Of a DNA stretch of 64,000 nt, positions 31,398-60,530 are shown piece after piece. Each line of letters starts with the position of its first letter. Within the stretch, counting starts at the first letter, position 1. The DNA comes from Flavobacterium sandaracinum. GTDB taxonomy: Bacteria; Bacteroidota; Bacteroidia; Flavobacteriales; Flavobacteriaceae. The translations under genes were made by a program, and so were the position numbers. The stretch spans positions 372,001-436,000 of the forward strand of contig NZ_SMFN01000001.1 of assembly GCF_004349135.1 (NCBI RefSeq), read 5' to 3'. Under the pieces are notes generated by a model. It ran no database searches and was not told where the DNA came from. It saw only the letters and a program-made list of their open reading frames with translations.

Positions 31398-31402
31398 TTT
31401 TT

Positions 31403-37400: not shown

Positions 37401-40369
37401 AAATCAATAGTTAAAGGACTACATACTACAGCAGGATTTGTGATTACTAAAATAGGCAAAGCATTTGCTGTTACTGTTCCAGAAGCACTTGAACTGATAC
37501 ATCCTGTTGTAGTATTGGTTATAATTACACTATAAGTTCCCGCTACGGTTGTGGAAAAACTGGCGACACTTCCGGGGTTTGTAAAGCCTGTTGGAACAGT
37601 CCAAGCGTACGAATAAGTGCCTGCGATTCCGGGAGTGGCTGTTACAGTTGTTGATACTCCCGAGCAAACCACCGGACTATTCACGGTAACTGTTGGTAAA
37701 GCATTAACGGTTATGGTTGCCGTTTTTTGACATCCATTAAAATTGGTATAAGTAATGGTTGCACTTCCAGCAGCTATTCCATTCACCACTCCAGTAGTAC
37801 TGACTGTTGCAATTGCAGGATTTGAAGAAACCCAAGGATTTGTAGTTGCAGGAGTTCCACTTCCTATTAGAGAAGTTGACAAACCGACGCAAACCTTTAA
37901 GGTTCCTGTTATTGTTGGTAATGGATTAACAGTGACAATTAAGGTAAATGAATTACCCGAACAGGTACCAATTTTTGGTGTTATGGTGTATTTTGCTGTT
38001 TGAGCTGTTGTAGTATTATTTATTAATGCACCACTTATGGAAGTTTGATTTGTACCCAAAACTCCACCTGAAATCCCACCTGTTACAATTGGAGTGTTCC
38101 ACGAATAAGTTGTTCCCACTGGAATAGCGTTTCCAGAAGTTGCGTTTGAAGGAGTGACAGAAAAAGTAGTTCCACTACAAATAGCAATTCCTTCATTTTG
38201 TACCATTGGTGCAACTTGCACTGCAAAAGTATTACTTTCAACTGTTGTTGTTCCACATTCATTGGTAACCGACAGTGAAACCACATAGTTGCCGGGCAAT
38301 GCGTAAGAGACTGCAGGTGGAACAGCCGTCGTTGCTGTTGCCGGAGTTCCTCCAATAAAAGTCCATAAATAAGTTGTTCCTGCTGCATTAGGAGAGCAAA
38401 TAGTAATATTCGCTATTGGATTAAGAGTTGCATTTTGACAAAAATTAGATATTGTATTTATAGTAACTGTTGGCGGTTGCTTAACGATTACCGTTTTAAC
38501 TAAAGTTGTAACGGGTCCGCAGGAATTTGTCATTGTAAGTTTTATCGAATATGTTCCTGGAGTAACAAAATTGAACGTGGGATTTGCTGACGAAGCGCTG
38601 CCCGTTGCATAATTCCAAGAAGGCGTGCCACTTCCACAATACCCGTTTGCATAAGCAACTTCCCAAGCGTAAAGTGGCGGAGTGCAGGGATTGATTACGC
38701 TTGTTGCATTTGTAGTTACCACATTTAAGGGCGAACACCCTTCAGTAGTATTTAAGGTAAATTGAGGAATGAATGGGGATTCGATGCAAATTGTGCTCCT
38801 AAACACTGAAGGAGTACCGCAATAACCATAGGTAGTCAAAGAAATTGAATAAGTACCAGGCGAAGTATAACTATGATTAATATTTGGAATTCCCGTAGAT
38901 GTTATACTTGAAATAGGACTTCCATCGCCAAAATTCCATTCATAAAGTGTGTTTTGTACACAACTTTGATTCAATGATGGTGTTGAATTATTTGTAAATA
39001 CAATACTTGAATTAACACAACCATTAATTGGATTTGTAAATTTAGAAACTGGAGGTCTTAAAATACTTATTGGTGAGATCGTAGATTTTGTTGTTCCACA
39101 AGAATTAGTCATAACTAAAGTCGCTGTTATACTAGCATTAGGACAGCTTGTAGAATCATATATATGGGGTACTGGATAATTAGCAGATAAGGCTGGATTA
39201 CTTGAATTATAATAAACCGATGCATTTAATTGCGCTTGGGTTAATATAAGAGATGGCGTAGTATCTCCATAATCAATTGTATAGATTGTCGTTGGTGAAT
39301 TTTTACCCCAATTGGCTATCACAAATTCTAAATTAGGTGTTGGAGCACATAAGTTTTCTGTACTACCAGGACTACTCAAACTTCCAGATGGATTAGACTC
39401 GTTTTTTACAGTATACGTTTTACTACTTAAACAACCATTTGATCCTATAGCGGTTATTACCATTTGAAAAGCACCTAATTGCGTATAAGAATGATTTACA
39501 GGAAAACTAACATTTGATAATGAGTTACCATCTCCCCAATTTATTGAATAGGAAGTGATACAAGAAACTGATGATGACGAATTTGCTACAGAAACTGAAT
39601 AATTTGGGTTCGATGCAGATGCTGAACCACAATTACTAAATTGATTGGACAGATTCAACGGATTATAAGGAACATTGCCATCTTGAAAATTTACATCGGG
39701 CTGCTGTTTTATTTTTATTGTCTTCGTTATTGTATTTGAACAGCCGCTAGTGTTTGTAATCGTTAACGACACATTAAATGTGGCTATTCCGCAACCTAAT
39801 GAAGTAAAAATATGTGATGGATTTTTGAGAGCAGAGGTAGTTCCATCCCCAAAATTCCAAGTGTAAATAGTTCCAAAGCTTGCAGTGCTAAATTGAACTG
39901 CAGTTCCAGAACATAGGTTATCAGTAAAAGTAAAATCAACAACTGGAGGGGCAGTAACAGTTACGGTAACACTTCCATTTTGCGGAATTTCTACGATTGG
40001 CATCGATGCATCTCGAACACTTATTAAGGTGTATGCAAAACTTCCTATAGTAGCTGTTGGCACGTTGATTGTTGCAGCATTGCCTGAGGTAGTGGTTAAA
40101 GTAGGTTGTTGTACTCCATCAATACTATAGGTAAACGTATAAGGTGCCGTTCCTCCCGCTCCTGTAAAGGTGATTACTGGCAGGGATCCGTCTTTACAAA
40201 CAGAAGAGGTACTGGTAGTTATGGTTGTTGTAGGTGGAGCTAAATTAGTGTCTCCCTTATTTAGGATTTTTTTCTCCTTAATTAAAAAGCTGCTGGTGAC
40301 TTTAGCGCTTAATTGATGAACTGAAAATAGTAAAACAAAGAAAAATAGAATCCTGTAAAGGTGTTTCAT
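31403..40369 (-). CDS. Giant SprB-like adhesin with PKD and SprB repeats and T9SS type B sorting domain (2988 aa)
   Basis: A cell-surface protein exported by the type IX system. It starts with a signal peptide (MKHLYRILFFFVLLFSVHQLSA). Next come PKD domains (YTWNFGDGTTSALKNPSHIF; YEWNFGDGSPI), Ig/BIG-like modules (VNGIAAGSATITYTNFNGC) and a tandem block of Ig-like units. From about residue 1750 to 2730 there are roughly a dozen SprB-type repeats of about 80 aa, each opening with a Cys-Phe-Gly-like motif (VLCFGDNTGSATATAIGG) and ending in ITEP. A last PKD domain precedes the type B sorting domain: PPTGFTPNNDGINDYFAPV, VYDTWGSLIYS, ending KGALVLIN. Function as a gliding or adhesion filament is inferred from SprB. 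A TATATTTG box on the minus strand (40445-40438) may belong to its promoter. Confidence 0.95.
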   Translation of the reverse strand: MKHLYRILFFFVLLFSVHQLSAKVTSSFLIKEKKILNKGDTNLAPPTTTITTSTSSVCKDGSLPVITFTGAGGTAPYTFTYSIDGVQQPTLTTTSGNAATINVPTATIGSFAYTLISVRDASMPIVEIPQNGSVTVTVTAPPVVDFTFTDNLCSGTAVQFSTASFGTIYTWNFGDGTTSALKNPSHIFTSLGCGIATFNVSLTITNTSGCSNTITKTIKIKQQPDVNFQDGNVPYNPLNLSNQFSNCGSASASNPNYSVSVANSSSSVSCITSYSINWGDGNSLSNVSFPVNHSYTQLGAFQMVITAIGSNGCLSSKTYTVKNESNPSGSLSSPGSTENLCAPTPNLEFVIANWGKNSPTTIYTIDYGDTTPSLILTQAQLNASVYYNSSNPALSANYPVPHIYDSTSCPNASITATLVMTNSCGTTKSTISPISILRPPVSKFTNPINGCVNSSIVFTNNSTPSLNQSCVQNTLYEWNFGDGSPISSITSTGIPNINHSYTSPGTYSISLTTYGYCGTPSVFRSTICIESPFIPQFTLNTTEGCSPLNVVTTNATSVINPCTPPLYAWEVAYANGYCGSGTPSWNYATGSASSANPTFNFVTPGTYSIKLTMTNSCGPVTTLVKTVIVKQPPTVTINTISNFCQNATLNPIANITICSPNAAGTTYLWTFIGGTPATATTAVPPAVSYALPGNYVVSLSVTNECGTTTVESNTFAVQVAPMVQNEGIAICSGTTFSVTPSNATSGNAIPVGTTYSWNTPIVTGGISGGVLGTNQTSISGALINNTTTAQTAKYTITPKIGTCSGNSFTLIVTVNPLPTITGTLKVCVGLSTSLIGSGTPATTNPWVSSNPAIATVSTTGVVNGIAAGSATITYTNFNGCQKTATITVNALPTVTVNSPVVCSGVSTTVTATPGIAGTYSYAWTVPTGFTNPGSVASFSTTVAGTYSVIITNTTTGCISSSASGTVTANALPILVITNPAVVCSPLTIDLRSPNITTGSDPGLTLTYWTNSAATIALSNPSGVAVSGTYYIKALNTNGCTLIKPVVVIVNPLPPLPAVSPVSYCQNTTANILTATALSNHTLNWYTVATAGTPLAAAPTPNTATVGTVNYYASQTNTATGCEGNRATIVVTIKALPTVAVNSPVVCSGVSTTVTATPGIAGTYSYAWTVPAGFTNPGSVASFPTTIAGTYSVIITNSTTGCVSSSASGTVTANALPNLIITNPSSVCSPATADITSSSTTAGSDPGLTFTYWTNSLATIALSNPNAVAVSGTYYIKASNTNGCTLIKPVVVTVNTTPTVTTLLNLVKCNGEISSMIAFTGSVGSATFDWTNDTPSIGLSSAGSGNIAPFTATNSGLTPLIATITVTPKANGCIGTPKNFTITVNPTPTVDLPSNQTVCNGQSTNAIVFSGAIANTTYNWINNSPAIGIGANGIGDIPQFTAINNGTNPIIATITVTPSINGCPGTTKTFTITVNPSPAVTFSQSPQTICSGSSNALVTLESATAGVAFGWITTQPTGISETIATSGTNTIPTQTLTNTTNADITIEYNATATVAGVTACLGASFKYTIIVKPQPRITSPLAQTICSTTAFSITPSDGSGNIVPSGTVYTWSAPLVSPVGAISGANAQSIPQSSISQTLVNATDQMAVATYMVTPRSGTCAGIAFPVVITVNPSPKVVFSRVNQKICSGNDAVAINLSSPTTGSVTFNWTASIPPGITGATSSGTTAVIPIQTLTNTTAGPLTVIYTATATLNDGVVCQGPPNSYSITVNPAIITSSVLSNYNGFNLSAVGANDGSIAVSVSGGSGSYTYSWSGPNSFLASSQNIANLKAGDYTLTINDGLCDPVILSFTLTAPQSLIIQEDTAAHANIFCNGYSTGSIKVVITQQSIGPYKYELILQGGGIVQSSLNNSALDYTFDGLVAGTYDIKVTDSNGSVKTIVGVVISQPSGITASISAQTNVLCFGDNTGSATATAIGGSGALTYSWNTLPIQTTPTAVGLTAGTYKVTITDTNSCAIEKQVVITEPDGLVTSISTQTNILCFGNSTGTATIAVSGGKVPYAFSWSTLINNTSATASGLSAGTYNVTVTDANNCIKVQQVIITQPTAVLESSISSFNNVSCFGGSDGKATVAVTNGSAPYTYSWNTVPIQTGATATGLTKGNYSVSITDINGCETTSAVAIEQPAAISTSISAQTNVACSGSDSGSATIMPNGGTAPYTFSWNTTPIQTTATGINLAKGTYLVTVVDGNNCSTIQQVVITEPNGLVTAIASQVNVDCFGKSTGSATVSVSGGTAPLTYSWDTATVNTTLSASGLVAGSYHLTVSDANGCQKIQEVNITEPADLAITTDLEKDVTCFGDSDGAIKITVSGGTPVYSYSWTKDGTAFANTEDLSNLSPGIYQITVSDANNCGPKTATFTITEPPVLEVTFGSKTDIKCFGTATGAINVNVIGGTPSPSGYNFAWTGPNGFTSASQNLIAVFAGNYNLIVTDNSGCTDRLTVILTQPSLVTVSATTTPIVCYGDNDASIRLTVSGGVALYTVLWSNLAVGLVQENLSAGDYVATITDANNCIKTITVNIPEAPLFKMDPTVTQISCFGARDGSIKLNLVGGIPSVKLVWSDNSLAGTTRNNLGPGTYTATIIDGTPCSITKTFVIIEPQALVLAANTTNALNCDDANSGAINLLVSGGTPPFSYVWSNGAVTEDLNAIPAGNYLVTVTDARKCSASGSYSVIRPAAIAVKVETATDFNCETKVVKQSFVAKTSGGVPPYQFVWSSGSVSGPNNEIMSTSQNGLVVLNAIDSRNCSTTYTFDVAIPQLGSPSFTTASIGYSTYGIYSIEDPIQFTNTATGDYTAITWDFGDATFSTEENPTHIYKKEGTYIVSQTVTYPFGCVYVRQITLEVEKGYRLIPPTGFTPNNDGINDYFAPVLLGLNDIHFDVYDTWGSLIYSESGENIRGWDGKINTKEGENGNYYFTITATTFYGKIIKDKGALVLIN
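36495..37700 (-). repeat. Tandem near-identical repeat within the adhesin gene, period 732 bp
   Basis: The stretch 36495-36968 recurs at 37227-37700 with a constant offset of 732 bp (244 codons) and only scattered differences, for example at 36849 and 37581 where long runs are identical. It encodes two copies of an Ig-like unit containing VNSPVVCSGVSTTVTATPGI. The high identity points to a recent in-frame duplication or ongoing gene conversion. Confidence 0.85.
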
Positions 40370-40816: not shown

Positions 40817-43800
40817 ATGAAGAAAAATTACTTTGTAGCTTTATGTATCATTTTGCTATTGAACCAATTATCATTTGCTCAGTCAAAAGACGAATCAGAA
40901 AAAATTCAGAAAGAAATTTACAAAAAAATAAAAATTGCTAATCCTTCATCGGAATTAATGAATAAGTTGGGAAGAATGGGACTCGATTTAGATTGCGGTT
41001 CGCAATTTGATTCAAATGGGGATTTACTAATTGAAGTTTCTACTTATGAAGAAAAAAAAATCAAAAATATAACTCCATACAAAGTCGTTGTAGATGATAT
41101 GGAAAGTTTTTATGCAAATCGTGCTTTAAAAAATTTACCGCAAGCTAAATCAATTTTAAGAACCCAAAAATTAAACAAGACTAAAAACACAAATAAAACG
41201 ACAAGCCTTAAAACGACAACTTTTGGAAACATTACACACCGATTTGAAAATACAGAAATCGATTGGAATGTCCCAACAAACTACCAACTTGGCGCTTCAT
41301 TTGGGGGCTGTTTAACCGTTGACGAAACCAATGCTCAATTGGATTTGATGAGAAGTAAATATCCAAACTTAATAACTGCAAAAATAAATGCTTCGCCTAC
41401 AGACCAACTTACTATAGAGAACAGACCTATTTATGTAGTCAAAATTTCTAACTCAGCTATCAGTGGAACCAAACCAGAAACACTATATACTGGAATGACT
41501 CATTCAAGAGAAGTAGCCAGCTTAATGAATCTTACCTATTTTATGTGGTATCTTTTAGAAAACTATACAACCGACCCAGATGTAAAAAATTTAGTGGACC
41601 ACCACGACCTTTACTTTATTCCAATCGTAAATCCTGATGGATTGGCTTACAACCAAGCACAATCACCAACTGGTGGGGGAATGCAAAGAAAAAACAGAAG
41701 AGAAACTGGAGCTTGTACTACTTTTTTAGACGGTATTGATCTGAACAGAAACTGGGGAACGTATTGGGGATACGATGATCAAGGCTCATCTCCTAATGGA
41801 TGCAATGATACATACAGAGGAACTGGAGGATTCTCTGAAGCTGAAACTACAATTATCAAAGATTTTTTCTTATTACATAATTTCAAAACATCTGTAAATC
41901 ACCACGCCTATAAAAACGCTGCCCTTCATGGTAGAGCTGCTTTTTATCGTACAAATAATTTATCCACAAATCCAGGAGTACCAACAGGAAGAGAAAATGA
42001 GTACTATCAATATTCTCATGATATGACGCAATTCAGTCGTTACGCTTACGGATCAAGCCCTAATATCAGCTACTGGAACAATGGAAATTGTAATGACTGG
42101 ATGAGTGAAGGCTCAGGAAAAAACACTCTATGTTGGACGCCTGAAAATGGAGCGACAACTGGCGAAGGGGGTTTTTGGCCTACACCAATTCAAATAACAC
42201 CAATAGCCCAAAGAGCAGTAAGAATGAATTTCATTGCAGGATATTACAGCGGTGTTTATGCTAAATTACACGATTTAACCAAGTCAGATATAACAAACAC
42301 CAGCGGATCTTTAAGCTTTGGACTGGAAAGAGTAGGACAAACTTCTGGAGACTTCACCCTAACGGTAACTCCAATTTCTTCAAATATTCTATCCGTTACC
42401 AATGTTGAAACACAATCTGGGATGACTGTTCTAGAACAAAGAAATCTTGATGTCAGTTTTACTCTCAGCCCTACAATTGCAGCGAAAGAGAAAATTGAAT
42501 TTGAAGTCACTTTGTCAAATGGATCGTATACCATTTACAAAACTAGAATAGAAAAATATTACAACCCAACAAGCCTTTTTACTTCAGTAGCTAATCCAAC
42601 TACGCTTGCTTTGGCTGGTTGGACTGCTTCTGGAACTACATCTTGGGCAATAACCACTACAGATGGTTTTGGAGGGACTCCAGGTATAACAACCAACGCT
42701 GCGGCTGCTTATTCTAGCGCAATAACTACTGCAAATCTTACTCAAACAACAGCCATTTCATTAGCTGGAAAACAACAAATTGCCATTCAATTCAATGCTA
42801 AGTGGGATTTAGAAAGAAGTTTTGACTACGTACAATTACAAGGGACAACAGATAATGGAATTACTTGGATACCAATGAATGGAAAATACACAAAACCAGG
42901 TACAACAACTGCTGTTACTGATTACTCCACTACTCTCTCAACAACATCAAAAACTTTAGGAGATAAAGACTTCCAACCGGACGGTCAACCATTGTATGAT
43001 GGTGATAAATTTGGCAAATGGGTGTTAGAGGAATACTATATAAGCGCTACTGAAAACGCTGGACTATTCAACAAAACCAATGTTAAGTTTCGATTCATAC
43101 TAAGAACAGATTCCAACAATCGAAATCATGGATACAACACTACTTTCAAAGGGTTTCGATTTGACAACTTTAAAGTATTAGAAATTATTTCTTCGCCTCC
43201 TGTAGCCAATTGCAAGAACGCAACGCTAAACTTGAGCAGTGCTGGCGAATTAATTGTGCTTCCTAGCGATGTTAACAATAATTCAACTGACGACATTGGA
43301 ATTACAGCTATATCTGTATCTCCTAACAGTTTCAATTGTGCACATGCTGACACAGTACAACAAGTAACACTTTCTGTAACAGATGCTGATGGTCAAACGA
43401 GTACTTGTGTTGCCAACGTAACCATAAAAGATGTAACTCCTCCAGTAACGCCAATACTTACGAACGTTACTGCACAATGCGCTGCATCACCCACTGCACC
43501 TACAACTACAGATGTTTGTGCAGGTACAGTTACTGGTACAACCACTACAACTTTCCCTATCACGACGCAAGGAACAACAATAGTAACTTGGTCTTTCGAT
43601 GATGGAAACGGACAAATTGTAACCGCTGATCAAAATGTAATTATTGATGATACAGTTGCTCCAGTTACTCCAACTTTAGCCGATATAACAGGGCAATGCC
43701 TCGTAACTCCAATTGCTCCTACTACCACTGATTCATGCGCAGGAACGATTACTGGAACAACCACAACTACTTTTCCAATTAGTTCGTCAACTGTAATAAC

Positions 43801-45403
43801 TTGGACTTTTAGTGATGGAAACGGACAATCTGTTACTGCTAACCAAAATGTAATTATTGGCTCAACAATATGGAATGGCAGCACCTGGTCAAATGGATTA
43901 CCTGTAGCTGGAATGAATGCCATAATATCCGGAAACTTACCTATTTCAACTAACCTAACTGCTTGCAGTTTGACTATCAATAATAATGCGGTCGTAAAGG
44001 TAAATCCAGGATTTAATTTAAATGTTGAAGGAGATATAACAGTAGCGTCAGGAGCTTCTTTAACTTTTGAAAGCAACGCGAACTTGCTACAAAACAAAAA
44101 CACTAATGGCAATTCTGGAAATATTATTGTAAAAAGAAACACATCGCCTTTGATGCTTTTGGATTATGTTCTGTGGTCATCACCAGTTTCTGGACAACAA
44201 TTACAATCCTTCTCCCCACCTACCCTATCCAATCGTTTTTACACGTATAATCCAAGTACAAATTTGTACAACGCAATCGTTCCTACAAATAATTTTGCAA
44301 CTGGAACCGCTTACTTAATTCGCATGCCAAATAATCATCCTACATCACCCACAATTTGGGAAGGACAGTTTCAAGGGGTTCCTAACAATGGGGATTACAC
44401 TATTACAGTGGCAAACAATGCGTACAATGCAATTGGGAATCCGTATCCTTCAACTATAAATGCCAATACATTTATTTCAACAAATAATATCAGTGAAGCA
44501 TTGTACTTTTGGAGAAAAACGAATAACACAGCTACTTCTTCTTATGCCACGTACACCACGGCTGGAGGAACTGCTAATGCAGGTGGTCTAAGCAGTATTG
44601 AACCCAACGGAATTATTCAAGTGGGTCAGGGATTTATTGCTAAGTCGTCTACTCCAACCATTTCGTTTACTAACGCTATGCGTGTAGCCAATAACGCCAA
44701 TCAATTTTTAAAAACTAAAGAAACAGAGTTGCACCGAATTTGGCTAAATCTTTCCAAAGAGGCCACGCCTGTAAACCAAATGTTGATTGCCTATATGCCA
44801 AAAGCAACTTTGGGAGTTGATGCCACAATCGATGGAAGATACATAAATGATAATGCTACGGCTTTGAATTCGCTGATTGAAAACGAAGAATTTGTGATTC
44901 AGGGAAGGAGTCTGCCTTTTTCTGATTCGGATGTTGTGCCGCTTACTTTCAAAACGAATACTGCGGGTAACTTTACGATCGCAATTGATCATGTTGACGG
45001 TTTATTTACTGCCAGTCAAAACATTTTCTTAAACGATAAGGTTACAAGTTTAAACCATGACTTGAAAAAGACTAGCTATTCCTTTACTACAGCAGCGGGA
45101 ACATTCAACGATCGATTTGAAATTGTGTACAAAGAAAATTCGACATTAGGTCTTGCAGAGGGCGTTTTTAATGAGAATACGGTGCTTGTTTACAATCAAA
45201 AAGGAATTATAAACATCAATGCTGGTGAAAAAACAATAGCTACAGTCAAAATATTTGATATTCGAGGAAGATTAGTTTATGAAAAAAACAACATCAATTC
45301 GTCTCTAACGGCATTAGATTCCTTTATGGCGGCTCATCAAACCTTGATTATCCAAATAACATCTGACGAAAATAAAGTAGTCCGTAAAAAGCTGATGTAT
45401 TAG
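40817..45403 (+). CDS. Secreted M14 zinc carboxypeptidase with T9SS type A sorting domain (1528 aa)
   Basis: An exported exopeptidase. Signal peptide MKKNYFVALCIILLLNQLSFAQ. The M14 catalytic domain spans about residues 140-480: zinc ligands His229 and Glu232 (HSRE), substrate-binding Arg311 and Asn312 region in DLNRNW (308-313), the HH pair at 362-363 giving the third zinc ligand, and Glu443 in WTPENG as catalytic base. After it come a beta-sandwich (590-790, choice-of-anchor-like), two Ig/HYR-like repeats (795-1015) with VTPPVTPILTNVTAQC units, a module with YVLWSSPVSG and GNPYPS also seen in the two giant proteins downstream, and a type A sorting domain from about 1450 (VKIFDIRGRLVYEKN ... 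VVRKKLMY). The substrate is unknown. Confidence 0.93.
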   Translation: MKKNYFVALCIILLLNQLSFAQSKDESEKIQKEIYKKIKIANPSSELMNKLGRMGLDLDCGSQFDSNGDLLIEVSTYEEKKIKNITPYKVVVDDMESFYANRALKNLPQAKSILRTQKLNKTKNTNKTTSLKTTTFGNITHRFENTEIDWNVPTNYQLGASFGGCLTVDETNAQLDLMRSKYPNLITAKINASPTDQLTIENRPIYVVKISNSAISGTKPETLYTGMTHSREVASLMNLTYFMWYLLENYTTDPDVKNLVDHHDLYFIPIVNPDGLAYNQAQSPTGGGMQRKNRRETGACTTFLDGIDLNRNWGTYWGYDDQGSSPNGCNDTYRGTGGFSEAETTIIKDFFLLHNFKTSVNHHAYKNAALHGRAAFYRTNNLSTNPGVPTGRENEYYQYSHDMTQFSRYAYGSSPNISYWNNGNCNDWMSEGSGKNTLCWTPENGATTGEGGFWPTPIQITPIAQRAVRMNFIAGYYSGVYAKLHDLTKSDITNTSGSLSFGLERVGQTSGDFTLTVTPISSNILSVTNVETQSGMTVLEQRNLDVSFTLSPTIAAKEKIEFEVTLSNGSYTIYKTRIEKYYNPTSLFTSVANPTTLALAGWTASGTTSWAITTTDGFGGTPGITTNAAAAYSSAITTANLTQTTAISLAGKQQIAIQFNAKWDLERSFDYVQLQGTTDNGITWIPMNGKYTKPGTTTAVTDYSTTLSTTSKTLGDKDFQPDGQPLYDGDKFGKWVLEEYYISATENAGLFNKTNVKFRFILRTDSNNRNHGYNTTFKGFRFDNFKVLEIISSPPVANCKNATLNLSSAGELIVLPSDVNNNSTDDIGITAISVSPNSFNCAHADTVQQVTLSVTDADGQTSTCVANVTIKDVTPPVTPILTNVTAQCAASPTAPTTTDVCAGTVTGTTTTTFPITTQGTTIVTWSFDDGNGQIVTADQNVIIDDTVAPVTPTLADITGQCLVTPIAPTTTDSCAGTITGTTTTTFPISSSTVITWTFSDGNGQSVTANQNVIIGSTIWNGSTWSNGLPVAGMNAIISGNLPISTNLTACSLTINNNAVVKVNPGFNLNVEGDITVASGASLTFESNANLLQNKNTNGNSGNIIVKRNTSPLMLLDYVLWSSPVSGQQLQSFSPPTLSNRFYTYNPSTNLYNAIVPTNNFATGTAYLIRMPNNHPTSPTIWEGQFQGVPNNGDYTITVANNAYNAIGNPYPSTINANTFISTNNISEALYFWRKTNNTATSSYATYTTAGGTANAGGLSSIEPNGIIQVGQGFIAKSSTPTISFTNAMRVANNANQFLKTKETELHRIWLNLSKEATPVNQMLIAYMPKATLGVDATIDGRYINDNATALNSLIENEEFVIQGRSLPFSDSDVVPLTFKTNTAGNFTIAIDHVDGLFTASQNIFLNDKVTSLNHDLKKTSYSFTTAAGTFNDRFEIVYKENSTLGLAEGVFNENTVLVYNQKGIININAGEKTIATVKIFDIRGRLVYEKNNINSSLTALDSFMAAHQTLIIQITSDENKVVRKKLMY

Positions 45404-45457: not shown

Positions 45458-45685
45458 ATGAAAATGAAACATACTTTATTAAAAACATACTGCACTCTTT
45501 TTTGCCTTTTGTCCAGTTTCCTGCTATTTGCAATTCCACCGGGAGACGACAGTGATACTGGCGATTTAGAAAGCGCTGATGCTCCTGCTGCGCCAATAAA
45601 CGGGAAATTGTTTGTATTAGCCATTGCAGGAATACTTTTTGCCTATTATACGTTCAAAAAACTAAGAGAAAAACAAGCTGCCTAA
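45458..45685 (+). CDS. Small signal-peptide and single-helix membrane protein (75 aa)
   Basis: MKMKHTLLKTYCTLFCLLSSFLLFA is a signal-peptide-like N-terminus. It is followed by an acidic linker (PPGDDSDTGDLESADAP), PINGKLFVLAIAGILFAYYTF as a C-terminal membrane helix, and a basic tail KKLREKQAA. Proteins with this PINGKL-helix-basic-tail pattern resemble short C-terminal membrane anchors and are common next to T9SS cargo genes in Flavobacteriia, as I remember them. It begins 55 bp after the peptidase gene and may share its transcript. Function unknown. Confidence 0.75.
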   Translation: MKMKHTLLKTYCTLFCLLSSFLLFAIPPGDDSDTGDLESADAPAAPINGKLFVLAIAGILFAYYTFKKLREKQAA

Positions 45686-45809
45686 ATACAGCTATTTGCT
45701 TATTCAGTTAATCCTTTAAAGTAAAAAAGTATCAAAATTTGAATCTAAAATTTAGATTAAAGTTTTTCAAATCTAATTCTCTAACACTAACAATTGATAA
45801 AAAACAACT

Positions 45810-45872
45810 ATGGTAATCATTATTATATTAATAGAAATCATTAATTCACTAACAGTATTATTAACCAATTAA
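45810..45872 (+). CDS. Microprotein ORF 1 (20 aa, hydrophobic), tandem copy A
   Basis: ATG at 45810 to TAA at 45870-45872 encodes MVIIIILIEIINSLTVLLTN, a single hydrophobic helix-like segment with one Glu at position 9. A second ORF 73 bp downstream encodes the same peptide with three conservative changes. The two ORFs differ in seven codons, four of them synonymous, and share an A-rich leader (AAAAAACAAC) directly before the ATG. That pattern implies selection on the peptide. It resembles in length and composition type I toxins such as Ibs, but there is no sequence identity that I know of. No antisense promoter could be placed. Confidence 0.65.
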   Translation: MVIIIILIEIINSLTVLLTN

Positions 45873-45882
45873 AAAAACAACC

Positions 45883-45945
45883 ATGATAATCATTATAATT
45901 TTAATAGAAATCCTGAATACACTTACAGTACTATTAACCAATTAA
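45883..45945 (+). CDS. Microprotein ORF 2 (20 aa, hydrophobic), tandem copy B
   Basis: ATG at 45883 to TAA at 45943-45945 encodes MIIIIILIEILNTLTVLLTN, the partner of the preceding ORF. The spacing between starts is 73 bp, with the unit made of leader plus ORF. After it, the leader repeats again (ACCAATTAAAAAAT) and is followed by GTGATACTGCTATAA at 45955-45969, which looks like a truncated third copy. Expected location is the inner membrane. Function unknown. Confidence 0.65.
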   Translation: MIIIIILIEILNTLTVLLTN

Positions 45946-45979
45946 AAAATAATTGTGATACTGCTATAATAAGAATTAT

Positions 45980-46007
45980 AGCCAACTGTAATTGAAAACA
46001 GTTGGCT
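45980..46007 (+). terminator. Hairpin after the tandem microprotein ORFs
   Basis: AGCCAACTGT (45980-45989) and ACAGTTGGCT (45998-46007) form a perfect 10-bp stem with an 8-nt loop, 35 bp after the second ORF. No strong T-run follows, so it could be a transcript end, a stabilising 3' hairpin or part of a small RNA. Confidence 0.55.
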
Positions 46008-46443
46008 GTAATTCCTATTATATGATTAAGCGCACATAATGAAATTTGATTATCTAACGTAAATAGCAAAATATTTTGTGATTGTATAAAGTATATTTAA
46101 CAGTGGTAATTATAAAAAAAAACGAAAAGTATCATATGACTTAAAAGTATAACCTTTTCCTTAAAAAATTGAACGTAAAAAAAGCTATTCTGATACGATC
46201 GCTTTTATAGATTCGATTTATTCTGTATTTAAAAAAAAAAAATTAAAATGACAACTTTAAACGTTATTAATTGCTCTTTATCGTTTACAAGACATTGTAA
46301 TTAGAATAAAATATTTTACTTTTGATGCGTTAAAGCATTCATTTTAAGAGGGAATACGTTAACAATAAAAAAAATGTAATAAAATTTATATTCTTACTTT
46401 ATAAAATAAGTACGGTTCTTAAATAAATACCACACAACACTAT
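46008..46443. other. Intergenic stretch before the glycine-rich T9SS protein
   Basis: About 436 bp, strongly AT-rich. I see no supportable ORF, RNA gene or repeat. It must contain the promoter of the next gene, but no clean TTG/TAnnTTTG pair could be assigned. Confidence 0.5.
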
Positions 46444-49400
46444 ATGAATAAAACTATACTTTTTACAAAAAAAACCTATTTTACAATAGCGCTTTTAAGT
46501 CTTGTTTTTTTAGGATATTCTCAATCTCCAAAAACTTATTCAAATTCTGGTAATTTTAACGTACCAGCTGGAGTTACAACTGTTAGAGTCCAAGCATGGG
46601 GAGGGGGTGGTGCAGGTGGCGGTGTAAATGGTGGTGGTGGCAGTAACAGAACTGGAGGTGGTGGCTCAGGAGGAACGTATACAAATAACACATCGGTAAC
46701 CGTAACCGCTGGTAACACAATAAATATTGCTGTTGGAGCTGGTGGTATTGGAGCAAATGCTGCTGATGGAAATTCAGGAGGTACATCCACGTTTAATTCA
46801 ACGATTCCAGTATCTGCAGTTGGTGGTGGTGGTGGTAGAGTTGGAAACGCTACCAATAATAATGGTGCTGGAGGCGCAATAGCGACAGGAATTACAAGAA
46901 ATGGTGGAACTGGAGCTGCAGGTAGTGCTACTTTAGGAAGTGGTGGTGGTGGTGGTGGTGCAGGAAGTACCGGTAATGGCGGTAATGGTGGTACCGTTGG
47001 TTTTGGTCCAGCTGCCGGTGCTGGAGGTACTCCAGAAGGAGGAGCTGGTGCAACTGGTTTTAGTTCAACTACCGCTGGAGTTGGTACATCCGCAACTTTA
47101 CTTAGCGGAGGAGGTAGCGGAGGAAGAAGTACAGGTAATACTGATAGAACCGGAGGTAATGGAGCAAATGGACAGGTAATTGTTACATGGTCATGCCCTA
47201 GTTATAGCTTAACAGGTACTTCAATAGCTTCACCATTATGTACCCCAAATGGAGCAGTGGTTACACTTGCAGGAGGAACAGGTTTACCAACCGGAAACTA
47301 TATCGTAACTTATAACCTTACTGGAACAAATACGGCTACAAATGCTACAGCCACTATGAGTGTAACAACTGCAGGAATAGGAAGTTTCACTACAACAGCA
47401 TTAGCTAACGTAGGACTTACAAATATTCAAATCACCAATCTTTCAAGTGGTGTATCGTCAGATAATTGTACTAATACTATAACTAGTGGTAATACTGCCA
47501 GCGTTACGCTAACCGCGTTACCTAATCAACCAAGTACCATAACAGGAAATGCAAGTTCTTGTTCAAATACGTCACAAACCTATAGTGTCACAGCAGTAGC
47601 TGGTGTAACTTACACATGGTCATTCCCTGCTGGTTGGGTACAAACTGCTGGAACAAATACTAACTCTATAATCGTTACTACTAGTTCAACTTCAGGAAAT
47701 ATTAGCGTTACCCCATCAAACAACTGCGGAAACGGTACTGCAAGAACTCTCGCAATAACAATCAGTACACCAATCGCTAATGCAGGTGCAGCATTAGCTA
47801 CCATTTGTCAAGGCAGTACAACAGTAGCATTAGGAGGTTCTTTTGGCGGTACAGCAGCAGCAGCAATCTGGTCTGATGGCGGCATTAGCGGGACATTTAC
47901 CAACAATACTGGATCAACTCCAAATACTACAACCTGGACACCTCCAGCGGGCTATACTGGCACAGCAACCTTAACATTGACAACCTCTGGTGGTAGTTGC
48001 GGCACTACATTTGCCACCAAAACACAAAGCGTCGTTACAGGACCCGTAGCGACCGTAGGAAGCGCTATGACAATTACTGGTTCGCTTACCTCTACCTCAT
48101 TAGGTGGAAACACTCCAAGTCCTGGATCAGGAGCATGGACTAGGGTTTCAGGTCCTGCAGGAACTGTAACTTTTAGCAATAGTACAAGTGGTTCTTCGAC
48201 AGCTACAGTACCTACGATAGGAACTTATGTTTTTAGATGGACTGTAACTAGTAGTTGTGGTACTAGTACAGCTGATATTACTGTAACCTATTTAGATGCT
48301 AACACACATAGAGATTACACCATTTTTTATGAAGATTTTGATGCTTCAAACGGAGGTTGGTCAAATACAACTACTACTAATGGTTCATGGGTAAGAACAG
48401 ATACATTTCCTGGCGTTGCCGAAATTGGTGAAAATTCATTTTGGAGAACAAACAACTTTAATGATTACTCAAATAATACTGCCATAGAGATTACTAGTCC
48501 TGTTTATAATTTTACAGGATACGAAAACTTACTATTCAACATAGACATACGTTATAAAACAGAAACAAACTATGATGGTATGCGAATTTTATACTCTATC
48601 AACAATGGTGCTTTTGTAGTACTTGGCGCATCCGGAAACGGAGTAAACTGGTATAATTCAACAACTGTAGCTGCTTTGGGTGGTAACGGATGGAGCAATA
48701 ACAATGCTACAGCTAACCTAGCCTTTACTCCAGTAGGTGTTGGAGCAAACAGATTCATTAAAGCAACAACTACATTAGCTGACGGAACTTTTAGAAACCA
48801 ATCAAATGTTCGCTTCAAAGTAGAGTTTAGATCAGATGCAAGTAATGTAGATGACGGAGTAGCTTTTGACAATGTATCCGTAGAAGGAAATCCTATGGTA
48901 GCATTAGCACTATCTCCTATTGCCCCTGCGAAAGTAAACCAAAACCTAAGTCTTTGGTTCAAAAGTAATGCAGGAATAGCAGTAACAGACGGAGCAGCAT
49001 TAACAGCATGGGAAGACCAAGCTTATGATATTACAAGAGCCGATTTAGTTAATAAAGAAAGTGTAAAAGCTTTAGCAGATGATGCGCCTACTTTTCGTGA
49101 TAATAGTACTCGAAATATCAACTTTAATCCTGTTGTTGACTTTAACGCTGCAAACAAGGATTATATGAATGGTAAAGGTGGCTTATACTCACAAGATTAT
49201 TTTATAGTGGTATATCCTAATGATATTGTGCAAAATACGATGGGAACTAACGGACGACAAATTCCCTTGGGAGGTAAAAGTGACGACAGTAATTTTCACG
49301 AAGATCCAACTGGGTTAGGGTTTGGAAACACAACTGCTCGCTACACCCCAGATGAAGTTATTTCACACAGTGTTGGGGCCTATGCGCCAGGAACAGACTC

Positions 49401-52400
49401 TCCTGCACCAGGAGTAGATTCTTACGGTAGAGCATTTACATCAACAACAGTAACCTACAACGAACCACTTATTATAAACGTAAAAACAAATGCAAGCGGT
49501 ACTCAATCAGAAATATATAAAAATGGTATAAAAATAGACAATACTGCGGGTAGAACAGGTAATAATGGCGACCAACAACTTTTAAACTTTTATGAATATA
49601 GAAATTTACCTTTCTATTTAGGAACTGGGCGAAGTGGAATCAGCGGTAGAACCTTTTCAGCCTTAAATGGAAGACTTTCGGAAGTAGTCGCTTATACAGC
49701 ACCTAACAGCGCCTTAAACCAACAAAAAATACAAAGTTATCTAGGTTTAAAGTATGGAATAACGCTACATGCGACAGGGAGTACTAATCCAACTGAGCTA
49801 AATGACGTTAACTATATAGACGCGGCAGGTAACACCATCTGGAACACCACTGCAAATAATGGATTTAATTATGATATTGCAGGTATAGGTAGAGATGATG
49901 ATTCTCAATTAAATCAAAAGCAATCAAAAACAGTAAATACAACTGATGATATCACCATTGGATTAACAGATATCTTTGCAACCAATACTGCAAACACCAA
50001 TACCTTTGACTCAGACAAGAAATTTCTGGTATGGGGAAATAATAGAGGTACTCTCGCTGCCCAACCTCAAGTAATTGTTAACATAAGTTCTGGAATTACC
50101 TCACCATCTGCCCTAACAACGAATGTTAGTTTTATTTCTGTAGGCCGTACTTGGAAAGTGGTAGAAACGGGTGGAAATGTTCCAACCGCGAAAGTATCTA
50201 TTCCTGCAGCAATGCTTACCGCTACTATAACTCCGCCGGGAGATTACTTAATGTTTATCTCAAGCACACCCAATTTTGATCCGACTGCTGAGTACAGAGT
50301 CATGAGAGCAAATGGATCTAACCTCGAAACTACCTATGACTTTGATGGTGCTAAATACATTACTTTTGGATATGCACCAGAGAAAACCGAAGTACGTAGC
50401 ATAAAATTCAACGGTACAACTGATTATATGGATGCGGGTAAAGTGTTGGACTTAAGTCCGGCATTTACCGTTTCGGCATGGATTAATAAAAATGACAACA
50501 ATTTCAATAAAACTATTCTTTCCAAGAGAAATAGCGCTTTTTCTACAGGATACGATTTAGGTATTAATGCAAGTGGACGTGCAGAAATGAGTTGGTATTC
50601 TGGTGTTACGAAACAAACGATAACTTCCAATGCTATCATTCCAATAGGAAAATGGCATCATATAGGGGTGACTTTTGATGGTACAACTGCCAAAATGTAC
50701 GTAGATGGTGTAAATAAAATAAGTTCGATTTTAACCGGAATTCCATCCGTAACGACAAATTCTTTCTTTATTGCAGCAGCAGATGGTGCAATTCCATCCT
50801 CTTATTTCAATGGTTCTATTGATGAGGTACGAGTTTGGAAAACAGCCCTAACTGATGCTCAGTTTCGCTATGTAATGAATCAGGAAATCCTTAGTGACGG
50901 TGCTCTTACTAATGGTTTTATAATTCCCAACACCATAACATTAAATGACATAATAAGTATTCCTTGGATTGATCTTAACGCCTACTATCCTATGTCTACG
51001 TACACATACACTAATGCTAAAGACAAATCCAGTTATGGATTAACGGCTGCCTTAAGAAATTTAAAAACGGTAGATAGACAAACAGCACCATTGCCATACG
51101 AATCGGCATCCACTGGAAATTGGGAAACCATTGGAACTTGGACGAACAGTGACTTACAAAATTTACCTTACAGCACTTCAATAGAAGACCCCTTAGAAAC
51201 AACATCGCCTCCTACACCTCCAGGAATACCCGTAACCATTGACTGGAATATAGTTCGTGTTAAAAATTCTCATACAATAACTTCCATTGGAAATAAAAAG
51301 GTTTTAGGTCTTGATATTGAACCAACAGCAAATTTAATAGCTACCACCTCAAGCGGATTACAAACGGATGGAACCAAAATAGAAGTTTCCCATTACCTCA
51401 AACTGAATGGTAAAATTGATTTAGTAGGTCGTTCGCAATTAGTACAAACCTCTGGAAGTGACTTAGACATAGCAAGTGAAGGTTCACTAGAAAGGGACCA
51501 ACAAGGGCAAGCTAATAAATTCAATTATAACTATTGGGGATCTCCTGTAGGTGCTATAAATGCAACAACAAATAACACTGATTTTACAGTTGCCGAAGTT
51601 TTAAAAGATGGTACAAATCCTGCGTCACCAGGACCAATAACGTGGATAGATGGTTTTAATGGAGCAACATCTCCTTTTAGTTTAGCCCGTTACTGGATTT
51701 ATAAATTCGATAGTAACGACAAAGCAACTGATTATGCCAATTGGACACAAATAGGTGAAAATGGAATACTTGAAGCAGGAAAAGGATTTACTTTGAAAGG
51801 ACCGGGAACTTCAGGAACACAGAACTTAGTTTTCACAGGGAAACCAAATAATGGTACGATTACAAATACCGTTGGTTCAGATCAATTATTACTAGTAGGA
51901 AATCCATATCCATCAGCATTGGACGCTGATCAATTTATAAATGATAATATTGGTTCCATAGAAACATCTATAATAGATGGAACTATAGACGGTGCTTTGT
52001 ATTTCTGGGAACATTACGCTAGCAACAACTCCCATAATTTAGGTGCATACGAAGGAGGATATGGCGTACGCAATTTAGCAGGAGGGGTCGCTCCAAGTGC
52101 TCTTGGAGTTGATTTCATAAGTGGCGCTGGATCTACCTCAAAATTGGCTCCTAACAGATACATCCCTGTAGGTCAAGGATTTTTTGTAATTGGAAAAATT
52201 GGATCTGGGGGAACAGTCACTTTTAACAACGGTCAAAGAGAATTTATTAAAGAGGATAATACAACATTTTCACAAACAACCTATAGAATTCCTTCTAATC
52301 CCAAAACAGAATCGCATTGGACAGACAATAAGGATGCTGTCATAGCAATAGACACCCATAAAAGAGTGCGTTTGGGTTTCAATTTTTACAATCAAAGTTT

Positions 52401-53043
52401 TCATAGGCAAGTTTTATTAGCCTTTATGGATGAAAAAGCAAATAGTGACATGAACGATGGTTATGATGCCTACAACATCGATGATTCACCAAGCGACATG
52501 TATTTATTGAACGGAAAAAATAAATTAGCTATAGCAGGCGAAGGTTATTTTGATGAAGAAGCCTCCTTCCCTATTGGTATTCGATCTGAAACAACAGGGA
52601 AAATCTCTTTCGTTTTAGATGGCTTAGAGAACTTTGACGAAAGTCAAAATATATTTATCCACGACAACGATACAGATACCTATCATAGTATAAAAGATAC
52701 AGCGTATGAGGTAGAACTTACAGAAGGAACTTTCAACGAGCGCTTCTCCTTGCGTTTTACGGATAAGAGTCTTGCTGTGAAAGATCCGGTGTATGCCAAC
52801 GCTATTACGGTGTTGTTTACCCGTTCTAACAATACGTTGAATATTAAAAACAAAGCTGCTGACAATACCGTTTTGGCCGTTTCCTTGTACAGCCTTCAAG
52901 GAAAATTAGTTTCAAAATGGGAGGTAAAAGAGAAAGAGCAATCTAATATTCAAATCCCTATTCAGGACAAAACTTCGGCAGTGTATCTTGTAAAACTGAA
53001 AACTTCAAAAGGAAACATCAGCAAGAAAATTATTATTAAGTAA
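46444..53043 (+). CDS. Giant glycine-rich, LamG-containing secreted protein with T9SS type A sorting domain (2199 aa)
   Basis: Signal peptide MNKTILFTKKTYFTIALLSLVFLGYSQ. Residues about 40-250 are a Gly-rich domain (AWGGGGAGGG and similar), encoded by GGT-rich DNA with short GGT microsatellites at 46817 and 46940. Ig/PKD-like modules follow (TGNASSCSNTSQTYSVTAVAGVTYTWSFP). Next is a CUB/anchor-like sandwich (about 620-820), then a lectin-like module opening NLSLWFKSNAGIAVTDGAALTAW. A LamG/concanavalin fold spans about 1315-1480 (IKFNGTTDYMDAGK). After that comes a shared C-terminal module with QQGQANKFNYNYWGSPVG and GNPYPSALD, then a type A sorting domain (VSLYSLQGKLVSKWEVKEK ... KKIIIK). It is probably a surface adhesin or glycan binder; the ligand is unknown. 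Confidence 0.92.
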   Translation: MNKTILFTKKTYFTIALLSLVFLGYSQSPKTYSNSGNFNVPAGVTTVRVQAWGGGGAGGGVNGGGGSNRTGGGGSGGTYTNNTSVTVTAGNTINIAVGAGGIGANAADGNSGGTSTFNSTIPVSAVGGGGGRVGNATNNNGAGGAIATGITRNGGTGAAGSATLGSGGGGGGAGSTGNGGNGGTVGFGPAAGAGGTPEGGAGATGFSSTTAGVGTSATLLSGGGSGGRSTGNTDRTGGNGANGQVIVTWSCPSYSLTGTSIASPLCTPNGAVVTLAGGTGLPTGNYIVTYNLTGTNTATNATATMSVTTAGIGSFTTTALANVGLTNIQITNLSSGVSSDNCTNTITSGNTASVTLTALPNQPSTITGNASSCSNTSQTYSVTAVAGVTYTWSFPAGWVQTAGTNTNSIIVTTSSTSGNISVTPSNNCGNGTARTLAITISTPIANAGAALATICQGSTTVALGGSFGGTAAAAIWSDGGISGTFTNNTGSTPNTTTWTPPAGYTGTATLTLTTSGGSCGTTFATKTQSVVTGPVATVGSAMTITGSLTSTSLGGNTPSPGSGAWTRVSGPAGTVTFSNSTSGSSTATVPTIGTYVFRWTVTSSCGTSTADITVTYLDANTHRDYTIFYEDFDASNGGWSNTTTTNGSWVRTDTFPGVAEIGENSFWRTNNFNDYSNNTAIEITSPVYNFTGYENLLFNIDIRYKTETNYDGMRILYSINNGAFVVLGASGNGVNWYNSTTVAALGGNGWSNNNATANLAFTPVGVGANRFIKATTTLADGTFRNQSNVRFKVEFRSDASNVDDGVAFDNVSVEGNPMVALALSPIAPAKVNQNLSLWFKSNAGIAVTDGAALTAWEDQAYDITRADLVNKESVKALADDAPTFRDNSTRNINFNPVVDFNAANKDYMNGKGGLYSQDYFIVVYPNDIVQNTMGTNGRQIPLGGKSDDSNFHEDPTGLGFGNTTARYTPDEVISHSVGAYAPGTDSPAPGVDSYGRAFTSTTVTYNEPLIINVKTNASGTQSEIYKNGIKIDNTAGRTGNNGDQQLLNFYEYRNLPFYLGTGRSGISGRTFSALNGRLSEVVAYTAPNSALNQQKIQSYLGLKYGITLHATGSTNPTELNDVNYIDAAGNTIWNTTANNGFNYDIAGIGRDDDSQLNQKQSKTVNTTDDITIGLTDIFATNTANTNTFDSDKKFLVWGNNRGTLAAQPQVIVNISSGITSPSALTTNVSFISVGRTWKVVETGGNVPTAKVSIPAAMLTATITPPGDYLMFISSTPNFDPTAEYRVMRANGSNLETTYDFDGAKYITFGYAPEKTEVRSIKFNGTTDYMDAGKVLDLSPAFTVSAWINKNDNNFNKTILSKRNSAFSTGYDLGINASGRAEMSWYSGVTKQTITSNAIIPIGKWHHIGVTFDGTTAKMYVDGVNKISSILTGIPSVTTNSFFIAAADGAIPSSYFNGSIDEVRVWKTALTDAQFRYVMNQEILSDGALTNGFIIPNTITLNDIISIPWIDLNAYYPMSTYTYTNAKDKSSYGLTAALRNLKTVDRQTAPLPYESASTGNWETIGTWTNSDLQNLPYSTSIEDPLETTSPPTPPGIPVTIDWNIVRVKNSHTITSIGNKKVLGLDIEPTANLIATTSSGLQTDGTKIEVSHYLKLNGKIDLVGRSQLVQTSGSDLDIASEGSLERDQQGQANKFNYNYWGSPVGAINATTNNTDFTVAEVLKDGTNPASPGPITWIDGFNGATSPFSLARYWIYKFDSNDKATDYANWTQIGENGILEAGKGFTLKGPGTSGTQNLVFTGKPNNGTITNTVGSDQLLLVGNPYPSALDADQFINDNIGSIETSIIDGTIDGALYFWEHYASNNSHNLGAYEGGYGVRNLAGGVAPSALGVDFISGAGSTSKLAPNRYIPVGQGFFVIGKIGSGGTVTFNNGQREFIKEDNTTFSQTTYRIPSNPKTESHWTDNKDAVIAIDTHKRVRLGFNFYNQSFHRQVLLAFMDEKANSDMNDGYDAYNIDDSPSDMYLLNGKNKLAIAGEGYFDEEASFPIGIRSETTGKISFVLDGLENFDESQNIFIHDNDTDTYHSIKDTAYEVELTEGTFNERFSLRFTDKSLAVKDPVYANAITVLFTRSNNTLNIKNKAADNTVLAVSLYSLQGKLVSKWEVKEKEQSNIQIPIQDKTSAVYLVKLKTSKGNISKKIIIK

Positions 53044-59592: not shown

Positions 59593-59900
59593 ATTTAGCT
59601 ACTATTTATTTTTTATCTGACTCGAGCAACAGCGAACAAGCGAAGCAATATGCTATCAACTTAGTTCGTTGTTTTTTATGATTTTTGAATCATGGCGAGT
59701 TCATTATCACTGGGTTTTTTGCTAAAATACAAAAAAATAGTATGCGTGCCTATAAAATTAATTTGTTAATATTATGTTAATATTTGGTACTATGCGAAAC
59801 AAGATACTGTCCTTTAGATATATATTTGCATAAGAAATTACTATGCAGCCTAAATGCTATTATAGTTAACCCGTTTCAATCATCATCAAAATCAAAAAAA
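59593..59900. other. Divergent intergenic region upstream of DUF4442 and DUF4870 genes
   Basis: 308 bp with no supportable ORF beyond an unlikely N-terminal extension of the DUF4870 frame. TATATTTG at 59821-59828 matches the -7 box for the rightward gene but lacks a -33 TTG at the right distance. Confidence 0.45.
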
Positions 59901-60356
59901 ATGGAAACCACTACTGAAAAAAACATCGCAACATTTACACATTTGAGTTCGTTAACACAATACTTTATTCCTTTTGGGAATTATATTTTTCCAATAGTGC
60001 TTTGGAGTACTAAAAAAGAGCAATCGGAATTTGTGGATCACCACGGAAAACAAGTCTTGAATTTTCAATTAAGTTTACTATTGTACTCTTTATTGCTCAT
60101 TATGATTGCCATTCCTTCGTTTCTTGTTTCGGTGTTTCAGAACACCTCATTTCAAACCTTAGTACATCATCATGACATTACGCTTTCCAATTTCAACTTT
60201 GAAAATAATATTGGCGCGTTAACTCTGGGATTGATTTGTGTATTGATTTTTGGTCTTTTGAAAGTGGCTGAATTCTTTTTAATCATTTATGCTTCAATCA
60301 AAACATCAAATGGAGAAAAATACAAGTATCCAATAACGATTCCGTTTATTAAATAG
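59901..60356 (+). CDS. DUF4870 domain-containing membrane protein
   Basis: The ATG at 59901 (METTTEKNIATFTHLSSLTQYF, 151 aa) is preferred; an in-frame ATG at 59784 would add 39 unlikely residues and lies upstream of the -7 box. The sequence has the DUF4870 pattern: LTQYFIPFGNYIFPIVLW, the conserved DHHGKQVLNFQLSLLLYS, and further hydrophobic segments at about 95-130 (IGALTLGLICVLIFGLL). It has about three to four membrane helices. Family members are small inner-membrane proteins of unknown role. It precedes the PadR-PspC-head-GIN operon, which carries functionally similar membrane-stress-type proteins, but a 272-bp gap with a repeat element separates them. Confidence 0.85.
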   Translation: METTTEKNIATFTHLSSLTQYFIPFGNYIFPIVLWSTKKEQSEFVDHHGKQVLNFQLSLLLYSLLLIMIAIPSFLVSVFQNTSFQTLVHHHDITLSNFNFENNIGALTLGLICVLIFGLLKVAEFFLIIYASIKTSNGEKYKYPITIPFIK

Positions 60357-60405: not shown

Positions 60406-60530
60406 CTAGCCCTGATTACTTCACATTTTATATATCTTCAGAGGAGTTCAGTGAATTTCATTTGCAGCGGCATCCTTTACTTGCTTTCTTTAAGCAAGTA
60501 AAGATAAAGTGGAAAGCAGGAATATGCTCC
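60406..60530. repeat. Dispersed intergenic repeat-like element of the Flavobacteriia type
   Basis: The block runs CTAGCCCTGAT ... GCGGCATCCTTT ... AAAGAT ... GGAAAGCAGGA ... GCTCC. I remember this ordered set of motifs as a common structured intergenic element in Flavobacterium genomes. It includes a perfect inverted repeat CTTTACTTGC (60475-60484) and GCAAGTAAAG (60494-60503). Its role is unknown: it could be a mobile repeat or a conserved RNA element. The recognition is from memory only. Confidence 0.5.

What the first reader, a model, noticed from the sequence alone, without database searches (positions are those of the whole stretch)
45810..45969. Tandem 20-codon ORFs encoding near-identical hydrophobic peptides
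Seen: two ORFs 73 bp apart encode MVIIIILIEIINSLTVLLTN and MIIIIILIEILNTLTVLLTN. Seven of twenty codons differ, four synonymously and three conservatively (V/I, I/L, S/T). Both have the same A-rich leader, and a third truncated copy (GTG ATA CTG CTA stop) follows, then a 10-bp hairpin. Random noncoding duplication would not keep the frame or favour synonymous change. Known: short hydrophobic peptides in tandem copies are typical of type I toxins such as Ibs. Inference: a membrane-acting microprotein family, possibly a toxin with an antisense RNA. I know of no description of this peptide.
Basis: partly seen in the sequence, partly recalled or inferred. Interest (0 to 1): 0.8.

Follow-up and report, generated by a model that had tools for sequence, protein, structure and literature searches.

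The report
Duplicated tiny membrane-peptide gene in Flavobacterium
Two neighbouring 20-codon frames encode nearly the same water-repelling peptide, and a related Flavobacterium keeps one intact copy in the same place, so this is probably a real but rare membrane micro-peptide whose job (toxin or other) is still unknown.

Summary
In detail: window 45810-45872 and 45883-45945 encode MVIIIILIEIINSLTVLLTN and MIIIIILIEILNTLTVLLTN on a 73-nt tandem repeat. An intact, single-copy, syntenic orthologue exists in Flavobacterium fryxellicola DSM 16209 (MVIIIILIELMNSLTVILTN). A third, unnamed Flavobacterium (G317) has the same site, but a deletion fuses MVIIIILIE to the downstream hairpin (MVIIIILIEIMTNWI). 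Among the three full copies 12 columns vary, by codon position 6/0/6; a neutral simulation gives no position-2 change with P 0.0044, and intact frames with such conservative residues with P 0.0002. All four starts have A at -3 and -6. So the frame is probably translated, as a single-helix membrane microprotein found in few species. The toxin/antisense inference is not shown: one near-consensus antisense -7 box lies in the hairpin of two of three loci, without a -33 box, and no RNA or toxicity data exist. The 'third copy' is not supported; the hairpin has 17 pairs plus 4, not 10. Against: three genomes only, the G317 truncation, and flanks conserved almost as well as the ORF.

The parts
45810..45872 (+). 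Micro-ORF copy 1, MVIIIILIEIINSLTVLLTN and stop
   Evidence: orthologue in F. fryxellicola
45883..45945 (+). Micro-ORF copy 2, MIIIIILIEILNTLTVLLTN and stop
45799..45871 (+). First 73-nt repeat unit, A-rich leader plus ORF
45872..45944 (+). Second 73-nt repeat unit, 88% identical to the first
45965..46022 (+). Strong hairpin behind the ORFs, terminator-like with a weak U tract; a homologous hairpin is present in all three loci
45458..45685 (+). Gene of a small protein with signal-like N-terminus and C-terminal helix (75 aa; in F. fryxellicola the start is the second Met, window 45464), upstream neighbour; no Pfam or NCBIfam match
45741..45758 (+). AT-rich palindrome between the 75-aa gene and the ORFs, perhaps a weak terminator of the 75-aa gene (inference)
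   Evidence: one base differs in F. fryxellicola; compare the clear terminators at this place in G152 and G010
40817..45403 (+). M14 zinc carboxypeptidase with T9SS type C sorting domain, upstream gene
46444..53043 (+). Glycine-rich / PKD / laminin-G T9SS cargo, next gene downstream

Best explanation
A gene for a translated, very short (20 aa) hydrophobic peptide, tandemly duplicated in this strain and found in only a few Flavobacterium species. Ribosomes start at the A-rich, SD-less leader. The peptide is long enough for one membrane helix (one acidic residue, E9, no basic residue) and inserts into the inner membrane, where it acts as a microprotein. The transcript ends at, or is protected by, the strong hairpin that follows. 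Shown: the frames, the orthologue, the codon-position pattern, the start context, the hairpin. Inferred: translation, membrane insertion, and transcription by read-through from the M14/75-aa genes. Whether it harms the membrane when abundant (as IbsC does) or serves a non-toxic role is open; I hold harm at about one chance in four.
For: Full-length orthologue in the same gene order in F. fryxellicola, E 8e-7 with a profile of the two window copies, named, read. Three full copies: variable columns by codon position 6/0/6; neutral star simulation P(no position-2 change) 0.0044, P(all frames intact and BLOSUM sum at least as high) 0.0002. First 9 codons of G317, those before the deletion, against window copy 1: 5 changes, 1/0/4, all synonymous. 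ORF without gaps at 87.3% identity to F. fryxellicola, against 81.5% with 2 gap columns upstream and 69.2% with 1 gap column between stop and hairpin. A at -3 and -6 in all four starts; these positions trend with ribosome density in F. johnsoniae (PMC6847099, passages seen). Hydrophobic ORFs of this size without K/R/H/D are rare in the local null.
Against: Only three of the genomes examined have it. G317 lost codons 10-20 but kept the hairpin, so the C-terminal half, or the whole peptide, is dispensable there. The noncoding spacer (81.5%) and hairpin (89.7%) are conserved about as well as the ORF. Taken pair by pair the frame tests are weaker: P(no position-2 change) 0.02-0.11, and amino-acid identity of copy 2 with F. 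fryxellicola is reached in 10.7% of simulations. No TAHHTTTG promoter was found in front of the ORFs in the three loci. The window copies come from one genome, so the test rests on 12 variable columns from two species. Copies of the small upstream gene in four other species have no peptide behind them.
Confidence: 0.57

Rival explanations
1. Type I toxin-antitoxin module (a special case of the best explanation): the peptide is a growth-arresting membrane toxin and an antisense RNA over the ORFs represses it.
For: Size, hydrophobicity, tandem copies and stable hairpin resemble Ibs and Zor; ZorO was found by searching for tandem small hydrophobic proteins, and IbsC (19 aa) likewise lacks a positively charged C-terminus (PMC8309996, passages). 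A near-consensus minus-strand -7 box (TAnnnTTG) lies at the same place in the hairpin of the window and F. fryxellicola and would read into the ORFs.
Against: That box misses one of the near-invariant bases, has no TTTG at the -33 distance and is absent in G317. F. fryxellicola has one copy only. No relative on plasmids, phages or viral contigs; narrow distribution. In the review passages a glutamate put into the Lpt membrane helix abolished toxicity, and residues 6-19 of IbsC matter while its N-terminus does not; here a glutamate sits mid-helix and G317 lost the C-terminal half.
Confidence: 0.15
2. The RNA, not a peptide, matters: the 3' region makes a structured RNA or terminator, and the frames are incidental.
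For: The hairpin is kept in all three loci, with 2 of 16 pairs changed on both sides and 43 of 48 cells paired; G317 kept the hairpin and lost the C-terminal half of the ORF; flanks are conserved about as well as the ORF.
Against: A hairpin behind the ORF does not explain 0 of 12 variable columns at codon position 2. The hairpin covariation is itself weak: 61 of 500 shuffles reach it.
Confidence: 0.2
3. Leader peptide of an attenuator: 13 of the 20 residues of copy 1 are I, L or V, and a terminator-like hairpin follows.
For: Composition of the peptide and hairpin placement.
Against: No branched-chain amino-acid gene follows; the next gene is a T9SS cargo that starts 420 nt behind the hairpin, and the sequence behind the hairpin is only 54.7% identical to F. 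fryxellicola. Two tandem leader peptides would be odd. One literature search on attenuation in Bacteroidetes listed one paper, on Staphylococcus.
Confidence: 0.04
4. Neutral duplicated AT-rich spacer, with apparent peptide conservation by chance.
For: AT-rich DNA readily gives I/L codons; few sequences; G317 is broken; flanks are similarly conserved.
Against: Simulated P 0.0044 and 0.0002; intact single-copy orthologue.
Confidence: 0.12

Closest known systems
IbsC and the Ibs peptides (Ibs/Sib type I toxin-antitoxin, E. coli)
   Same: 19-20 aa, almost wholly hydrophobic, no basic C-terminus (PMC8309996, passages), chromosomal, several copies (copy number of Ibs recalled)
   Different: No sequence homology shown; no antisense RNA shown; one glutamate in the middle; toxicity untested
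ZorO / OrzO (type I, E. coli)
   Same: Tandem duplicated small hydrophobic proteins were the criterion for its discovery (PMC8309996, passage)
   Different: ZorO is 29 aa and its mRNA hides the ribosome site in a 5' structure (same passage); no counterpart of its antitoxin RNA (recalled) found here
Non-toxic single-helix membrane microproteins of bacteria (such as CydX, KdpF, AcrZ; recalled)
   Same: One short hydrophobic helix, small gene
   Different: Those act on a known membrane complex (recalled); here the neighbours are secreted T9SS proteins
Branched-chain leader peptides such as IlvL (recalled)
   Same: Rich in I, L, V and followed by a hairpin
   Different: No biosynthetic operon downstream, tandem copies

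Membership tests
Type I toxin-antitoxin system | Short hydrophobic ORF with a predicted single membrane helix | tested here: met
   20 aa, at least 70% hydrophobic, no K/R/H/D, one E; helix inferred from composition, no predictor run
Type I toxin-antitoxin system | Antisense RNA, cis or trans, that pairs with the toxin mRNA | tested here: inconclusive
   Consensus scan: no exact minus-strand TAHHTTTG in the stretches scanned; a near-consensus TAnnnTTG in the hairpin of window and F. fryxellicola, not G317, without -33 box. No RNA data
Type I toxin-antitoxin system | Over-expression of the peptide stops growth or kills | not testable with these tools
   Needs an induction experiment
Ibs family | Match to a described RNA family of such loci in Rfam | tested here: not met
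   No Rfam family at gathering score at the locus; permissive scan gave only two eukaryotic families far below their cut-offs
Translated gene | Reading frame conserved in relatives with excess silent or conservative change | tested here: met
   but G317 is truncated and pairwise tests are weaker
Translated gene | Start context favoured in Flavobacterium (A at -3, -6) | tested here: met
   context from PMC6847099 (passages)
Branched-chain attenuator leader peptide | Biosynthetic operon directly downstream | tested here: not met
   next gene is a glycine-rich T9SS protein

The most novel reading that the evidence does not exclude
A new Ibs-like toxic micro-peptide family of Bacteroidota, repressed by an antisense RNA that might start in the hairpin, or by a trans RNA, and embedded behind a type IX secretion cargo gene. 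My searches of the paper library listed no description of a type I toxin of this phylum or of this peptide (listings only, plus passages of one review in which the word start 'bacteroid' does not occur).
Probability: 0.14. Interest if true: 0.6.

Novelty: new member of a known kind. Interest (0 to 1): 0.36.

Why it matters
Genes of about 20 codons are easily missed by annotation, above all in Bacteroidota, which start translation without Shine-Dalgarno sequences (PMC6847099, abstract). A pair of duplicates plus an orthologue with a conserved frame is a ready test case for whether such micro-ORFs are made and what they do in the membrane. If toxic, it would bring type I-like toxins into this phylum.

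Tried and rejected
Weak profile hits. Apart from the window's own genome, F. fryxellicola and G317, the further hits that I read in frame were pieces of longer, start-less or antisense frames (for example a TatA-like frame in L071, recognised by eye; similar frames in L012, L081, L082, L084) without synteny. From I read 19 of the 21 places outside the own genome and G223 (not L021 and L028, in frames of 643 and 128 codons); the 7 outside the own genome; the 6 outside the own genome and G223, which lists 71 places, 24 loci and some others already read. In one search I read minus-strand hits on the wrong strand; one search repeats them correctly. The DNA search with the repeat alone gave four short AT-rich matches besides the own locus among 60 genomes, without the ORF.

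Synteny without the peptide. In G152, G029, G176 and G010 an M14-type gene end and a 68-74-aa gene are followed by other sequence, and no short ORF resembles the peptide. So the ORF block looks like a gain in part of the genus, but loss elsewhere is not excluded.

Hairpin elsewhere: in the own genome only 16-22-nt pieces match besides the locus, so it is not a dispersed element. Antisense ORF in copy 1 (22 codons): its ATG is missing in copy 2 by inspection, so rejected. Third copy: rejected, see observation check. The sigma-70-type promoter scan is not meaningful in this phylum. My note says that no antisense promoter is conserved; on checking, a near-consensus box is shared by two loci, and the report now says so.

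Full report
What is there. The window lies in a Flavobacterium genome (own genome 4.03 Mb, 65 contigs; the genome identified as F. fryxellicola is listed as same genus). Two ATG frames of 20 codons at 45810-45872 and 45883-45945 sit on a 73-nt tandem repeat that is 88% identical. They follow an M14 carboxypeptidase with a T9SS type C sorting domain and a 75-aa small protein without a Pfam or NCBIfam match, and precede a long hairpin and a glycine-rich/laminin-G T9SS cargo. Upstream on the other strand are a 2988-aa SprB-repeat protein and a PorP/SprF protein.

Relatives. A profile of the two peptides, run on 398 genomes of the genus, gave hits at E up to 1 in 21: the own two copies, one full-length match in G223 (E 8e-7), and 21 places in 19 other genomes, of which the 19 places that I read in frame were not credible. 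The gene order there is the same: M14 end, 75-aa gene, one peptide (MVIIIILIELMNSLTVILTN), hairpin; the contig ends about 200 bases later. Another contig of that genome begins with DNA that by eye resembles the stretch in front of the G317 glycine-rich gene; it was reached with a made-up query. In 396 genomes and 299 genomes of the genus, draws that overlap with the first, only G317 was added. In 397 genomes of the family nothing credible came up outside the own genome. Plasmids, phages and viral contigs gave nothing (with copy 1; with the profile, 112 pattern stretches, none confirmed).

G317. This genome has the homologous SprB-like gene on one side, then a 134-aa frame that shares only its first 37 residues with the window's M14 protein (62% identity), then AAAAAAAGACAATT-ATG and MVIIIILIEIMTNWI, then a glycine-rich gene. 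The three-way alignment places a deletion from codon 10 to the start of the hairpin: the last codons of the G317 peptide are the hairpin's 5' arm. The nine codons before it differ from window copy 1 by 5 changes, 1/0/4 by codon position, all silent. This can be read as a still functional shorter peptide or as decay.

Is it coding? Copy 1 against copy 2: 8 changes, codon positions 4/0/4, 4 silent and 3 conservative codons. Copy 1 against F. fryxellicola: 8 changes, 3/0/5, 5 silent and 3 conservative. Copy 2 against F. fryxellicola: 9 changes, 6/0/3, 4 silent and 5 conservative. Together the three full copies vary in 12 columns, 6/0/6. With mutations placed at random on a star tree from the majority sequence the chance of no position-2 change is 0.0044, and of intact frames with such conservative residues 0.0002; pair by pair the first figure is 0.02-0.11 and the identity of copy 2 with F. 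fryxellicola is reached in 10.7% of simulations. Window against F. fryxellicola identity: 75-aa gene 85.6%, spacer 81.5%, ORF 87.3% without gaps, stop-to-hairpin 69.2%, hairpin 89.7%, downstream 54.7%; the last 3000 bases of the M14 gene 67.4% with 172 gap columns. Rate alone therefore does not set the ORF apart from its flanks; the pattern does. The starts have A at -3 and -6, which trend with ribosome density in F. johnsoniae (PMC6847099, passages). In the intergenic DNA of this window, hydrophobic ORFs of this size without K/R/H/D are expected 0.15 times and seen 3 times, two being this pair.

Hairpin. It folds at -26.7 (window), -17.3 (F. fryxellicola) and -22.7 kcal/mol (G317, a stretch with two hairpins). 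Of 16 pairs, 8 never vary, 2 change on one side, 2 on both, 4 depart by unpaired cells; 61 of 500 shuffles reach the covariation, so support is weak. It has only a weak U tract. Only 16-22-nt pieces of it recur in the own genome.

Promoters. In the stretches scanned no TAHHTTTG lies in front of the ORFs on the plus strand in the three loci; the only exact plus-strand match is in the window at +507 from the first ATG, in front of the next gene. On the minus strand a near-match TAGATTTG at -42 exists only in the window and would read away from the ORFs; TACAGTTG (window) and TACTGTTG (F. fryxellicola) lie at the same place in the hairpin and would read into the ORFs, but lack one near-invariant base and a -33 TTTG, and G317 lacks the box. 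Read-through from the upstream genes is my working assumption. In F. psychrophilum 287 transcribed regions lie antisense to genes, mostly from imperfect termination and non-canonical starts (PMC9723704, passages), so absence of a motif is weak evidence.

Verdict. Most likely a real membrane micro-peptide of few Flavobacterium species, duplicated here. The toxin reading remains open: the peptide resembles IbsC in size and lack of a basic C-terminus, and IbsC can be cut to 15 residues; but there it is the N-terminus that is dispensable, whereas G317 lost the C-terminal half, and a glutamate in the helix of Lpt abolished its toxicity (PMC8309996, passages). Antisense RNA and toxicity were not shown. 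Three short strings of the peptide occur in no paper of the library.

Noticed in passing
window 60453-60527 +: Flavo-1 RNA motif (RF01705), 43.1 bits, just above the gathering score of 42; it lies between the ORFs 59784-60356 and 60964-62700, the latter a PspC-like protein.
   Followed up: no
window 30393-40369 -: PorP/SprF-type protein beside a 2988-aa protein with SprB repeats, PKD domains and a CHU_C signal: a SprB/SprF-like pair.
   Followed up: partly
window 45458-45685 +: 75-aa protein with signal-like N-terminus, acidic middle and C-terminal helix plus basic tail; similar 68-74-aa genes follow M14-type/T9SS gene ends in G152, G029, G176 and G010, but no Pfam or NCBIfam model matches the window protein.
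   Followed up: partly
L078 6240-6644 - (G317): A 134-aa frame at the place of the M14 gene that shares only the first 37 residues with it, suggesting recombination or replacement at this site.
   Followed up: partly
window 60771 -: Another hydrophobic ORF, uncharged, MIIYFIWSIFLLSTLSLLA (position as printed by the script, not turned into plus-strand coordinates); no homologue search was made.
   Followed up: no
L038 2640-3110 (G176): Array of repeats around TTTGCGTCCTTTGCGGTTTTT behind the small gene (by eye).
   Followed up: no
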